Below, one piece after another: positions 55,012 to 58,873 of a stretch of 64,000 nt of DNA. Both the position numbers and the translations under genes were made by a program. The DNA lies in the NCBI GenBank assembly GCA_028280415.1, contig JANQLV010000041.1, positions 62,001-126,000 of the forward strand, written 5' to 3'. The stretch's first letter is position 1. Every line of letters begins with the position of its first letter. Under the pieces are notes generated by a model. That model had not been told where the DNA came from, searched no databases, and saw only the letters and a program-made list of their open reading frames with translations. Source of the stretch: Saprospiraceae bacterium (GTDB lineage Bacteria; Bacteroidota; Bacteroidia; Chitinophagales; Saprospiraceae).

Positions 55012-58000
55012 ATGAGTAAGAAACGAGTAAAAAGCACTGTACCTAAAAAGGTCATCAAGCACAACTTCAAAGGGAGCTTGTCACTTATTATTCCATGCTA
55101 TAACGAAAGCAAGCGTATAAAAAAGCTTTTAAGTACGCTACAAAGTTTTGATAAAAGGTGGGAACAAGCACTCGAAATTATTCTCGTCGATGATGGTAGT
55201 AATGATGACAGTGCTGAAAAGATCAAAGCCAGTTTTCCGAATGCTTTTGGCAATCAAACAGCTTTCCACTTTATTGAACTTCAACAAAACCAGGGAAAAG
55301 GGGCGGCTCTAAAAGCAGGAGTTGAAAAGAGTACGGGAGATTTTGTTTTGACCATTGATGCGGATATGGCTGCTGAGCCAGGTGAACTTCTCCAGTGGTT
55401 AAGTCAGTTACCGGATAAAACTTTTAATGAGAACGAAATCCTGATTGGTTCCAGGGAACACGAGCGTTCTTCGGTCAAAGGAGATTTACTCCGTAGGATT
55501 GCCGGTTTGATTTATAACTTTATCATTCAGCTTTTTACCAATGTCAATCTAACCGATACCCAATGCGGATTCAAATTATATCCGGCGGCAATCGCCAAAA
55601 GGCTTTTTTCCGGATTAAAAAGCAAAGGCTGGGCACACGATATCGAATTACTCAATCAAGCCAAATTTGAAGATATCCCCGTTAAATCCATGCCCGTCAA
55701 ATGGACACATCAGGCGGACTCAAAAATTTCCTTATTTTCCGATAGTATCTCCATGTTTTTCTCTACCATCGGCATCGCTCTCCGGCAAAACTGGAACTGG
55801 TTTATTCGTCAACCTATTAAAGATTTCAGCACTAAAAGCAATACCGGCAAAGAACCCAGTTACTACCGTCTGGGATTTGCTTTGGTTTCGATCCTGCTTT
55901 TGTTTTTGATGCCTATGCTGAGCTTTGATTATGGTATTACCGGAGATGAGCATGTACAAAAAGAATATGGAGAATTAATTCTTAAGCATTTTGAAAGCGA
56001 TGGAACGTATACCAACAAGAAAGGAGAAAATGCGCTAAACTATAAAAACCTGTATTATTACGGCGGGCTCTTCGATTACTCCGCCGCCTGGCTCAACGAA
56101 CATATAGGTGGATTGGATGAGTTTGACATGCGGCATTTGCTCAATGCTTTTGTCGGCTTTTTGATGATCCTTTTTACCGGTCTCCTGGCCAAAGAAGTCA
56201 GTGGCAGCTGGCGGGTTGCTTTTTTTGCTTTACTCTTTATGATCTTATCCCCCAGACTCTTTGGGCACAGTATGAACAATCCCAAGGATATACCTTTTGC
56301 AGCAGCTTACGTATTTACCTTATTACATCTAAGCAGATTTTTGAAGCAATTGCCAAGACCTGGTTCTAAGACTGTAATAATGCTCATTATCGGAATCGCC
56401 GCTTCGATTAATGTCCGGGTCGGAGGTATTCTGCTTATTGCCTATTTTGGTCTGTTTACCATTCTGACCTATTTGATCAAGCCGCAACTCAGAGCTTCTC
56501 TTCCCAACTTTAAATCAAGTGGAAAAATAGTTTTGATTGGTTTAAGTGTAGTCTTATTCTCTTATTTCGGCGGTATGCTCTACTGGCCTTATGCACTTGA
56601 AGCACCATTTAGCAATCCATTGAAAGCGCTCGGTGAAATGTCCAATTTTTCTACCAGTATCCGAATGCTATTTGAAGGGGAGCATCTCTGGTCGGATGAA
56701 TTACCCTGGTACTATATCCCGAAATATATTTCTCTGGCGGCTCCGGTTTTTATGCTATTGGGAATCCTTGCCTTTATTCCTTTTTATTTTATTAAATTTA
56801 AAAAGATAAATCCCTGGCCGATATTCTTCATTGCCTTCACTGCCCTGTTCCCGGTTGCTTATGCTATTTACAAGGAGTCTTCCCTATATGATGGAATGCG
56901 CCACTTCTTATTCATTTACCCGGTATTAGCAGTTTTAGCCGCCTGGGCCTGGAATCAATTGATAAATCTGCCAAAAATGCGTTGGGTACTTAGCGGTGTA
57001 CTCGCTATTTTGATGTTATTACCTGCCTATTGGATGGTCAAAAACCACCCTTATCAATATATTTACTTCAATGAGTTGGCAGGCGGTGTCGATGCTGCTT
57101 ATGGTCGTTACGAAACGGATTACTGGATGAATTCTATCAAAAATATGTGTAATTATCTGGTAGAAAATGATGAACGTATTAAAAATGGTGAAACGATAAG
57201 CATACATACGAATTGTTCTGATCCGGCAGGGCACTATATAAAAAAGGCCGTACCTAATGTCAAGGTCTATTACACCCGCTACAACGATCGGAATAAAAAA
57301 TCCGGTGATTACTTTATGTTTATTTCTCGTTTTGTAAACAAGGATTTGATGAAAAACGAGGCATGGCCGCCAGCCGATGTCATCTATACCGAGAAAGTAG
57401 ATAATACGGTGATCGGAGCCATATCCAGAAGGCCCTCTACTACTCCATTCGAAGGTGCAGAAGCAGAAAAGGCCCGGGACTTTAACACTGCTGAAATGAA
57501 ATTTGCTCAGGCAGTTCAGGAAGATCCCAAAGATGAAACCAGTTGGTTGGGGCTGGCAAATGCCCGCTTAAACCTACGCAAATTTCCCGAAGCCAAGCAA
57601 GCGATCGATGGTTTTATGAAATTGTCCGATACGCATGTTAATGGTTTATTCGCACTGGCTATATATTATCTGAATACTGGCAAAAACGAAGAGGCGAAGC
57701 AGACCTTAGAGAAAATCACCGATGTCAATTATAAATATAATGGAAGCTACTTTTACCTGACTTCCCTTTATTATAATGAAAAACAATTCGACAAGGCTCT
57801 GGCCGCAGCTTTAAAATACGATGAAGTAGGAGGTAGAGCCTTACAGGTTTATGATATAGGCATACAAATCGCCCAACAGCAGAGTAAAAAAGCAGAACAG
57901 CTCTACTTACAGTCTAAAAAGGCTTATTTACAAAGTGATGGGAGCAATGCCTTGAATTACCTGAAACAATCTCTCAGAGCCAATCCGGACTATGAGCCGG

Positions 58001-58080
58001 CCGTTAAGTTTGATCAACAGCTAAAAGAACAAATAGAAAAACAGCAGAAAGAAGCTCAGCGTAAAAAAGGTAAAAATTAA
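55012..58080 (+). CDS. Fused polyprenyl-phosphate glycosyltransferase (GT2), GT-C-type membrane glycosyltransferase and TPR domain
   Basis: A 1022-residue three-part protein (ATG at 55012; a TTG upstream at 54946 is less likely). Residues about 20-265 are a GT2 domain of the dolichyl-phosphate-mannose/GtrB type, with SLIIPCYNESKRI, ILVDDGSNDDS, the metal-binding DAD at 116-118, and TDTQCGFKLYPAAIAK. Residues about 285-720 carry roughly ten membrane helices and begin with an outward loop holding Asp312-Glu313 (ITGDEH), the acidic pair expected of GT-C enzymes that use polyprenyl-phosphate sugars. Residues about 815-1005 are TPR repeats, followed by a basic tail. The likely role is to make a lipid-linked sugar and transfer it across the membrane, the acceptor being unknown. 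It is followed by a methyltransferase gene 52 nt away. Confidence 0.85.
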   Translation: MSKKRVKSTVPKKVIKHNFKGSLSLIIPCYNESKRIKKLLSTLQSFDKRWEQALEIILVDDGSNDDSAEKIKASFPNAFGNQTAFHFIELQQNQGKGAALKAGVEKSTGDFVLTIDADMAAEPGELLQWLSQLPDKTFNENEILIGSREHERSSVKGDLLRRIAGLIYNFIIQLFTNVNLTDTQCGFKLYPAAIAKRLFSGLKSKGWAHDIELLNQAKFEDIPVKSMPVKWTHQADSKISLFSDSISMFFSTIGIALRQNWNWFIRQPIKDFSTKSNTGKEPSYYRLGFALVSILLLFLMPMLSFDYGITGDEHVQKEYGELILKHFESDGTYTNKKGENALNYKNLYYYGGLFDYSAAWLNEHIGGLDEFDMRHLLNAFVGFLMILFTGLLAKEVSGSWRVAFFALLFMILSPRLFGHSMNNPKDIPFAAAYVFTLLHLSRFLKQLPRPGSKTVIMLIIGIAASINVRVGGILLIAYFGLFTILTYLIKPQLRASLPNFKSSGKIVLIGLSVVLFSYFGGMLYWPYALEAPFSNPLKALGEMSNFSTSIRMLFEGEHLWSDELPWYYIPKYISLAAPVFMLLGILAFIPFYFIKFKKINPWPIFFIAFTALFPVAYAIYKESSLYDGMRHFLFIYPVLAVLAAWAWNQLINLPKMRWVLSGVLAILMLLPAYWMVKNHPYQYIYFNELAGGVDAAYGRYETDYWMNSIKNMCNYLVENDERIKNGETISIHTNCSDPAGHYIKKAVPNVKVYYTRYNDRNKKSGDYFMFISRFVNKDLMKNEAWPPADVIYTEKVDNTVIGAISRRPSTTPFEGAEAEKARDFNTAEMKFAQAVQEDPKDETSWLGLANARLNLRKFPEAKQAIDGFMKLSDTHVNGLFALAIYYLNTGKNEEAKQTLEKITDVNYKYNGSYFYLTSLYYNEKQFDKALAAALKYDEVGGRALQVYDIGIQIAQQQSKKAEQLYLQSKKAYLQSDGSNALNYLKQSLRANPDYEPAVKFDQQLKEQIEKQQKEAQRKKGKN

Positions 58081-58132
58081 AATTCACAATGCCCGGTTTC
58101 CGGAAGTGTGATAAATATATTAAACCGAAAAT

Positions 58133-58873
58133 ATGGATTTAAAGGAATTAGAGAGTGGCGTTGATCCATCTACCAATTGGTATTATCAATCGAAGAAAAT
58201 CCCTTTGTTTAAATATTTTAAGAACCTAACACAGAACCAGGATAAAAAGCTAACGGTGATTGACTTTGGTTCGGGTTCCGGCTTCTTTGCTTACGAATTG
58301 CATAAAGCATTTCCCGAATATATTGAAGATGTATTGCTCATTGATATTGGCTATACCAAAGCTGAAATGGAGGCTACCAAGGACGCTCCGGTTAAAAAGC
58401 TTCGCTATATCCCCAATGGTATTAACGACAGTATTGTCATCATGATGGATGTGCTAGAACATATTGAAGATGATTATGCCATTATCGAGGATATCAAAAA
58501 ACGACTTGGTTCAAATGCTTTCTTCTTCATCACCGTTCCCGCATTTATGAGTGTCTGGTCCAGTCACGATGTTTATCTTGGTCACTATCGCCGTTATACC
58601 ATCCCTATGCTTAGGGAATTACTGAGCAAGACAAAATGCAAAATCGACCAGCAGTATTACATCTATGGATCTATTTTTCCATTAGTCTGGATGGTCAGAC
58701 GGCTAAAGAAAAACGAGCAGAACATGAAAGCCCCGGAATCCTCGGATATGAAACCCCTCCCCGGACCAGTTAATTTTATACTAAAGCAATACAACTCTTT
58801 TGAGATGAATTTTCGAAAGTTGAACAAACTATTTGGCTTGACTTGCGTTGCAGAAGGGAAGTTAAAGTCTTAA
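58133..58873 (+). CDS. Class I SAM-dependent methyltransferase
   Basis: A 246-residue methyltransferase with motif [16 protein letters not shown] (about residues 42-56), an acidic residue after strand 2 (LLIDIGYTK), and motif IV-like [16 protein letters not shown]. The [14 protein letters not shown] segment is a family block that I associate with methyltransferases located next to glycosyltransferase genes for cell-surface polysaccharides or glycolipids. It starts 52 nt after the GT fusion, so they are probably cotranscribed and may modify the same glycan. Its 3' end overlaps the upstream extension, but not the chosen start, of the carboxylase gene. The substrate is unknown. Confidence 0.82.

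What the first reader, a model, noticed from the sequence alone, without database searches (positions are those of the whole stretch)
55012..58873. Self-contained glycan machine: GT2, GT-C and TPR domains fused in one protein, with a methyltransferase behind it
The sequence shows a GT2 polyprenyl-phosphate-sugar synthase-like domain (DAD metal motif, TDTQCGFKL block), then about ten membrane helices with an Asp-Glu pair in the first outward loop as in GT-C enzymes, then TPR repeats. Donor synthesis and transfer are usually done by separate proteins (GtrB plus a GT-C). A fusion would pass the lipid-linked sugar from one active site to the next, and the TPR part might present the acceptor, like the TPR part of eukaryotic OGT. 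The following methyltransferase could cap the same product. Bacteroidota have a general O-glycosylation pathway, so a role in protein or surface-glycan modification is possible, but the acceptor is unknown.
Basis: partly seen in the sequence, partly recalled or inferred. Interest (0 to 1): 0.7.

Follow-up and report, generated by a model that had tools for sequence, protein, structure and literature searches.

The report
Fused lipid-sugar synthase and periplasmic glycosyltransferase
One bacterial membrane protein joins the enzyme that loads a sugar onto a carrier lipid with the enzyme that later transfers that sugar outside the cell, often with a methyltransferase gene beside it; each piece is of a known kind, but I found no description of the combination, which points to methylated sugars being added to surface molecules.

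Summary
Window 55012-58080 (+) encodes a 1022-aa protein: a GT2 domain of the polyprenyl-phosphate-sugar-synthase kind, an 11-helix GT-C transferase, a small alpha/beta domain and about six TPR motifs. A class-I methyltransferase (MT) gene follows after 52 bases. Relatives were seen only in Bacteroidota (79 best of 199; the rest not seen); 21 of 298 genomes of the order sample carry the fusion with intact GT2. An MT lies directly downstream in 35 of 46 intact-fusion loci with a readable next gene (15 of 772 other ORFs). Split relatives have GT2, GT-C and MT as neighbouring genes. Corrections: the nearest analogue is animal TMTC (GT-C plus lumenal TPR), not OGT; the MT is probably cytoplasmic and so would act before transfer, not cap the product; "self-contained" is too strong, because several lineages keep the fusion with a GT2 that has lost its catalytic motifs. 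At least eight intact-fusion genomes lack the orthologous MT. Sugar, acceptor and activity are untested. New variant of a known kind.

The parts
55012..58080 (+). GT2 / GT-C / TPR fusion protein, 1022 aa, stop codon included
55069..55761 (+). GT2 domain (residues 20-250), polyprenyl-phosphate-sugar synthase type; motifs VDDGS, DADM, SREH, DTQCGFKLYP, GWAHDIELL
55357..55365 (+). D116-A-D118 metal motif of the GT2 domain
55732..55833 (+). long helix 241-274 linking GT2 to the first membrane helix
55861..57042 (+). GT-C membrane domain, 11 helices (residues 284-677)
55945..55950 (+). D312-E313 in the first periplasmic loop (by position the counterpart of ArnT D55/E56 and Pmt1 D77/E78)
   Evidence: residue numbers from PMC7801869
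56275..56289 (+). N422-N-P-K-D426, second periplasmic loop, possible sugar or lipid-phosphate site
   Evidence: role inferred
57082..57429 (+). alpha/beta domain, predicted periplasmic (residues 691-806); the ArnT alignment runs over it (282-808)
57442..57981 (+). TPR domain (residues 811-990, about six helix pairs), predicted periplasmic
58133..58873 (+). class-I SAM-dependent methyltransferase, 246 aa, stop codon included, predicted cytoplasmic

Best explanation
The protein is a donor synthase and an extracytoplasmic sugar transferase in one chain. Step 1 (inferred from fold and motifs): on the cytoplasmic face the GT2 domain moves a sugar from a nucleotide sugar to polyprenyl phosphate. Step 2 (inferred from linkage and topology): the neighbouring MT methylates that lipid-linked sugar, or its nucleotide precursor, still in the cytoplasm. 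Step 3 (unknown): a flippase turns the lipid-sugar over. Step 4 (inferred from fold and conserved residues): the GT-C domain transfers the sugar in the periplasm, with the periplasmic TPR and alpha/beta domains selecting the acceptor, most likely secreted or surface proteins, as in TMTC and PMT enzymes. The fusion keeps a dedicated donor supply next to its transferase. The architecture is shown (by sequence and a predicted model); the chemistry, order and acceptor are not.
Against: No biochemistry. Seven of 89 tree rows, and G317 beyond them, keep the fusion with a GT2 that has lost its motifs (G544 is a further S. grandis-like sequence, perhaps the same strain), so synthesis in cis is dispensable there. 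11 of 19 genomes lack the fused form. The orthologous MT is missing from 7 of 10 intact-fusion genomes tested (those of L053, L073, L075, L077, L078, L082, L086) and from G015; most are draft genomes. A phylogenetically corrected test of GT2 state against MT, with MT states partly set by hand, had 3 independent pairs and was not significant. The most hydrophobic 19-mer of the MT scores as high as some membrane helices of the GT-C, so membrane association is not excluded. The sugar cannot be read from the sequence. No flippase gene is linked; GtrA occurs unlinked in 5 of 6 fused genomes tested. No acceptor evidence.
Confidence: 0.55

Rival explanations
1. It decorates a glycan (LPS, O-antigen, exopolysaccharide or capsule) rather than proteins, as the GtrA/GtrB/Gtr and pentofuranose three-component systems do; the TPR part only scaffolds a glycan-assembly complex.
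For: Periplasmic glycan decoration by a GT-C with a polyprenyl-phosphate-sugar synthase and a flippase is documented (PMC11127046, passages). ArnT, a lipid A modifier (recalled), is among the best structural matches and its alignment runs over the alpha/beta domain too. Some unfused relatives sit beside an epimerase-GT2 fusion, typical of polysaccharide loci (L110).
Against: The locus is not in an obvious polysaccharide cluster: upstream an aminotransferase, downstream an acyl-CoA carboxylase, and other shared neighbours look like housekeeping genes (all these names read by eye). GT-C plus lumenal TPR is the layout of TMTC protein O-mannosyltransferases, and PF02366 is the protein-mannosyltransferase model.
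Confidence: 0.3
2. The fusion is a plain gene fusion without hand-over: GT2 feeds a common polyprenyl-phosphate-sugar pool that other GT-C enzymes also use, and the GT-C draws on that pool.
For: GT2 decay in several lineages while the GT-C stays conserved (mean pairwise identity GT2 51% intact against 20% degenerate; GT-C 49% against 46%); the genomes with decayed GT2 hold other GT2 genes, some about 250 aa long as in stand-alone synthases.
Against: In the 18 genomes where the GT2 subfamily was found it occurred once and only in cis with this GT-C, which suggests a dedicated partner (most of these genomes had been picked for a long frame).
Confidence: 0.35
3. The methyltransferase is a bystander of conserved gene order or acts on an unrelated substrate.
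For: Other neighbours are also shared among related loci; 7 of 10 intact-fusion genomes tested, G015 and the split L090 genome lack the orthologue; the corrected association test was not significant.
Against: MT adjacency is the widest of all neighbours (42 of 89 loci against 24 for the next), recurs with non-orthologous MTs in 10 of 31 loci without a fused GT2 and beside stand-alone GT2 genes, and the orthologue is in none of the 11 unfused relatives.
Confidence: 0.2

Closest known systems
TMTC1-4, animal O-mannosyltransferases (GT-C plus TPR)
   Same: N-terminal 11-helix GT-C, acidic pair in the first lumenal loop, C-terminal TPR on the lumenal/periplasmic side
   Different: No DUF1736 match; GT-C part not related by hhalign (0.2%) to four TMTC-like proteins of the same genomes, which match only over the TPR part (99.1%); an extra N-terminal GT2 domain; TMTCs are thought to use dolichyl-phosphate-mannose (PMC7801869), which a separate enzyme makes (recalled)
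PMT / GT39 protein O-mannosyltransferases (Pmt1, Pmt4, bacterial GT39)
   Different: no MIR domain in the Pfam list; fused GT2 and TPR; no sequence match to any solved GT-C up to E 10; substrate unknown
ArnT (GT83) with its partner ArnC
   Same: GT-C with a periplasmic domain and a polyprenyl-phosphate-sugar donor made by a GT2 enzyme; the two halves match ArnC and ArnT
   Different: ArnC and ArnT are separate proteins and ArnT modifies lipid A (recalled); no TPR
GtrA/GtrB/Gtr three-component glycosylation systems
   Same: synthase and GT-C pair acting on the two faces of the membrane
   Different: three separate proteins including a flippase (PMC11127046, passages); here synthase and GT-C are fused and a methyltransferase often joins
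DPMS / GtrB / ArnC polyprenyl-phosphate GT2 enzymes
   Same: fold and motifs
   Different: their own C-terminal membrane helices (recalled) are replaced by the GT-C domain
General O-glycosylation of Bacteroidota
   Same: same phylum; its glycans carry methyl groups; transferase, core flippase and ligase undiscovered (PMC12871550)
   Different: said to be phylum-wide, while this family is in 7 of 296 evenly drawn genomes, so it is not the general transferase

Membership tests
GT-C glycosyltransferases | GT-C membrane fold | tested here: met
GT-C glycosyltransferases | acidic pair in the first outward loop | tested here: met
   D312 invariant in 74 rows; the second residue is E or D in nearly all rows, A in L022
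Polyprenyl-phosphate-sugar synthases (GT2: DPMS, GtrB, ArnC) | GT2 fold with DxD | tested here: met
Polyprenyl-phosphate-sugar synthases (GT2: DPMS, GtrB, ArnC) | activity on polyprenyl phosphate | not testable with these tools
   needs an assay
GT39 / PMT | PF02366 over the curated cut-off | tested here: met
   28.4 against 22.7 bits; relatives L062 and L088 hit only PMT_2, below its cut-off
GT39 / PMT | transfer of mannose to Ser/Thr of a protein | not testable with these tools
   no assay, acceptor unknown
TMTC (GT105) | GT-C followed by lumenal TPR | tested here: met
   topology by prediction only
TMTC (GT105) | DUF1736 loop (PF08409) | tested here: not met
   not in the Pfam list up to E 1; the one PF08409 match of this genome is another gene (G000:C43)
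TMTC (GT105) | sequence homology of the GT-C part | tested here: not met
   hhalign probability 0.2% between A6 and four TMTC-like proteins of related genomes; human TMTCs themselves were not compared
Three-component glycosylation system | dedicated flippase | tested here: inconclusive
   GtrA PF04138 in 5 of 6 fused genomes, on other contigs; none in G013; other flippase families not searched
Class-I SAM methyltransferases | glycine-rich SAM motif | tested here: met
   D-F-G-S-G-S-G-F-F motif, Methyltransf_23 above cut-off
Class-I SAM methyltransferases | Rossmann-like fold | not tested
   structure job accepted but unfinished at the last poll

The most novel reading that the evidence does not exclude
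The fusion is a complete trans-membrane sugar relay: the GT2 site loads the sugar, the MT methylates it, and the fused protein itself passes the methylated lipid-sugar to its periplasmic GT-C site, without a separate flippase, onto TPR-selected surface proteins; in lineages where the GT2 died it survives as a regulatory or docking pseudoenzyme. One fused genome (G013) showed no GtrA, but other flippases were not searched.
Probability: 0.08. Interest if true: 0.9.

Novelty: new variant of a known kind. Interest (0 to 1): 0.55.

Why it matters
The fusion ties a donor synthase to its transferase, a pairing that usually has to be guessed, and the linked methyltransferase predicts an O-methylated donor. 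A recent review of Bacteroidota O-glycosylation states that the transferase, core flippase and ligase are undiscovered and that it is unknown when methyl groups are added (PMC12871550). A small gene set with a clear prediction (methylation on the cytoplasmic lipid-linked sugar) makes the second question testable in one lineage. The repeated loss of the GT2 motifs inside the fusion is a natural experiment on whether synthase and transferase need each other.

Tried and rejected
OGT-like role for the TPR part: set aside, since TPR is predicted periplasmic and the TMTC layout fits. Membership in TMTC by sequence: tested and not met; a match of the longer profiles was to TPR only. Sequence search of solved structures with the GT-C profile: no match up to E 10, so fold comparison was needed. 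Conserved neighbours other than the MT: genes that look like housekeeping genes, shared within groups (read by eye). Phylogenetic sign test of GT2 state against MT: 3 pairs, not significant. Length of the open frame as a marker of fusion: misled once, G055 (1055-aa frame) is an unfused protein with an upstream open stretch. MT structure: accepted, unfinished at the last poll. Literature: searches (2 papers listed; 0; 0; 7; 1; 10 of 582 listed) showed, in their listings, no paper on a GT2/GT-C/TPR fusion; the library is open-access only. GT-C/TPR proteins in prokaryotes are already noted in PMC7801869. Papers seen: PMC7801869 abstract and passages; PMC12871550 part 1 of 4 and passages; PMC11127046, PMC4973528 and PMC6151902 passages; other papers only as listings.
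Full report
WHAT IS THERE. The window comes from a genome whose nearest named relatives are Saprospiraceae (own genome G000, 7.1 Mb). On the + strand, 55012-58080 encodes a 1022-aa protein and 58133-58873 a 246-aa methyltransferase. Pfam finds Glycos_transf_2, PMT and TPR in the first and Methyltransf_23 in the second. 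Upstream on the other strand is an aminotransferase; downstream an acyl-CoA carboxylase gene (both names read by eye).

SPREAD. Of 19 genomes, the window's own included, 8 have the fused form. A scan of one genome per species found 199 relatives by two short conserved patterns; the best 80 were kept as 79 loci, all with Bacteroidota titles except one 'uncultured bacterium'; the other relatives were not seen. In an even sample of the phylum 7 of 296 genomes have a GT-C/TPR relative, and only the window's own genome among them has the fused form. In the order sample 128 of 298 have a relative (the weakest matches are not listed); 24 show an open frame of 900 or more, of which 21 have an intact GT2 in it (4), 2 a decayed GT2 (G544, which reads like S. 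grandis, and G317), and 1 is an artefact (G055). In the 24 genomes (20 picked for a long frame, 4 unfused) the GT2 subfamily was found in 18 at E 1e-40, once each: 17 fused, 1 (G442) as the gene directly upstream of the GT-C.

SPLIT FORMS. L088 and L089 have a 257-aa GT2 gene overlapping a 647-aa GT-C/TPR gene by 11 bases, with the orthologous MT divergent just upstream; L090 has the same pair of genes 14 bases apart, without the MT. G442 repeats the L088 arrangement. Upstream of the unfused GT-C/TPR gene L018 has two MTs, an epimerase (by eye) and a GT2 protein whose first half is weakly MT-like (20.9 bits, cut-off 27). L110 has an epimerase-GT2 fusion and two MTs upstream; L101 and L111 look alike by gene order. 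So the same activities keep meeting in different joinings.

METHYLTRANSFERASE. The orthologue (54-84% identity in six relatives) lies directly downstream in 7 of the 8 fused genomes, own included, and in none of the 11 others. Over 89 loci: intact fusions 35 of 51 have an adjacent MT (31 the orthologue; 5 loci end before the next gene); decayed fusions 0 of 7 (in L061 an MT stands two genes on); no GT2 domain 11 of 31, 10 of them other MTs; all further ORFs 15 of 772. MTs were recognised with nine seeds from these same loci, so unlike MTs are missed on both sides; one candidate directly after L078 (by eye) was not counted. Of the 16 intact fusions without an adjacent MT, 1 has the orthologue as second gene (L038), 3 have it elsewhere in the genome (L049, L058, L064), 8 lack it (L013 by G015; L053, L073, L075, L077, L078, L082, L086) and 4 were not tested (L046, L047, L052, L083). 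MT relatives beside stand-alone GT2 genes: 4 of 5 places read, three of them chosen because both hits lay close; one, in the window's own genome, also has a PMT_2 GT-C. The MT shows no signal peptide by eye. Its most hydrophobic 19-mer (residue 125 on) scores like some membrane helices of the GT-C but lies where class-I MTs have a core strand (recalled). I place it in the cytoplasm; if so it cannot act on the periplasmic product, and the lipid-linked sugar or its nucleotide precursor is the likely substrate. This is inference.

DEAD GT2 DOMAINS. In seven of the 54 fused-length rows of A3 (L061, L062, L063, L087, L093, L094, L097) the GT2 motifs are lost, while the GT-C motifs are kept with small changes. 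Profile comparison still relates the dead domains to the live ones: S. grandis 99.2%, L087/L093 96.2% over 232 columns, L094/L097 only 14.7% over 78 columns, so the last pair is doubtful; L061 still matches Glycos_transf_2 over its first half. G317 shows a further in-register remnant (18.8 bits). Mean pairwise identity is 20% among dead GT2 domains against 51% among live ones, while the GT-C part has 46% against 49%. The tree of 89 GT-C domains needs 4 changes for this state, at least 3 forced by well-supported branches; it is a quick tree with long branches. Genomes with dead domains hold other GT2 genes. So the GT-C can persist without its own synthase, and the fused domain may serve docking or stability.

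MECHANISM. My reading is load (GT2, inside), methylate (MT, inside), flip (unknown), transfer (GT-C, outside), with TPR choosing the acceptor. Shown: architecture, predicted fold, conserved residues, linkage. Inferred: activity, order, acceptor class. The TPR part is the least conserved domain (27% mean identity), as expected if acceptors differ between species, but TPRs often evolve fast.

KNOWN OR NEW. GT-C enzymes fed by separate synthases are well known (PMC11127046, passages), and GT-C plus TPR is known in TMTC, with prokaryotic relatives noted (PMC7801869). The listings showed no description of the three-part fusion or its MT partner. PMC12871550 (part 1 of 4 and passages) says that the transferase, core flippase and ligase of Bacteroidota O-glycosylation are undiscovered; this family is too narrow to be that general transferase, but could add a methylated sugar in its lineage.

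Noticed in passing
L134:1963-6028 (own genome, G000:C6): A second, unfused edition of the module: two GT2 genes and an MT overlapping or abutting, divergent from a 506-aa PMT_2 GT-C with an Asp-Glu pair near its N-terminus (by eye).
   Followed up: partly
L130:1984-3891 (own genome, G000:C43); also L131, L132, L133: TMTC-like proteins with DUF1736 over its cut-off and TPR occur in the same genomes as the fusion, apparently as an independent GT-C/TPR family.
   Followed up: partly
L110:3513-5444; L111:7023-8954 of the same length: An NAD-dependent epimerase fused to a GT2 (best NCBIfam hit PgfS, below cut-off), followed by methyltransferases and the unfused GT-C/TPR gene.
   Followed up: partly
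L135:2371-3803 (Saprospira grandis): MT and GT2 genes overlap by 28 bases, far from the degenerate fusion; possibly a donor module acting in trans.
   Followed up: partly
L072:7941-11408, L057:1613-4873: Aureispira-type fusions are longer (1086-1155 aa): in L072 there is extra sequence between the GT-C and TPR matches, in L057 within the GT-C match; both carry a different, non-orthologous MT downstream.
   Followed up: no
L136:2024-6002: GT2 and MT overlap and are followed by a 794-aa protein that looks YfhO-like to my eye but had no Pfam match at E 0.001.
   Followed up: partly
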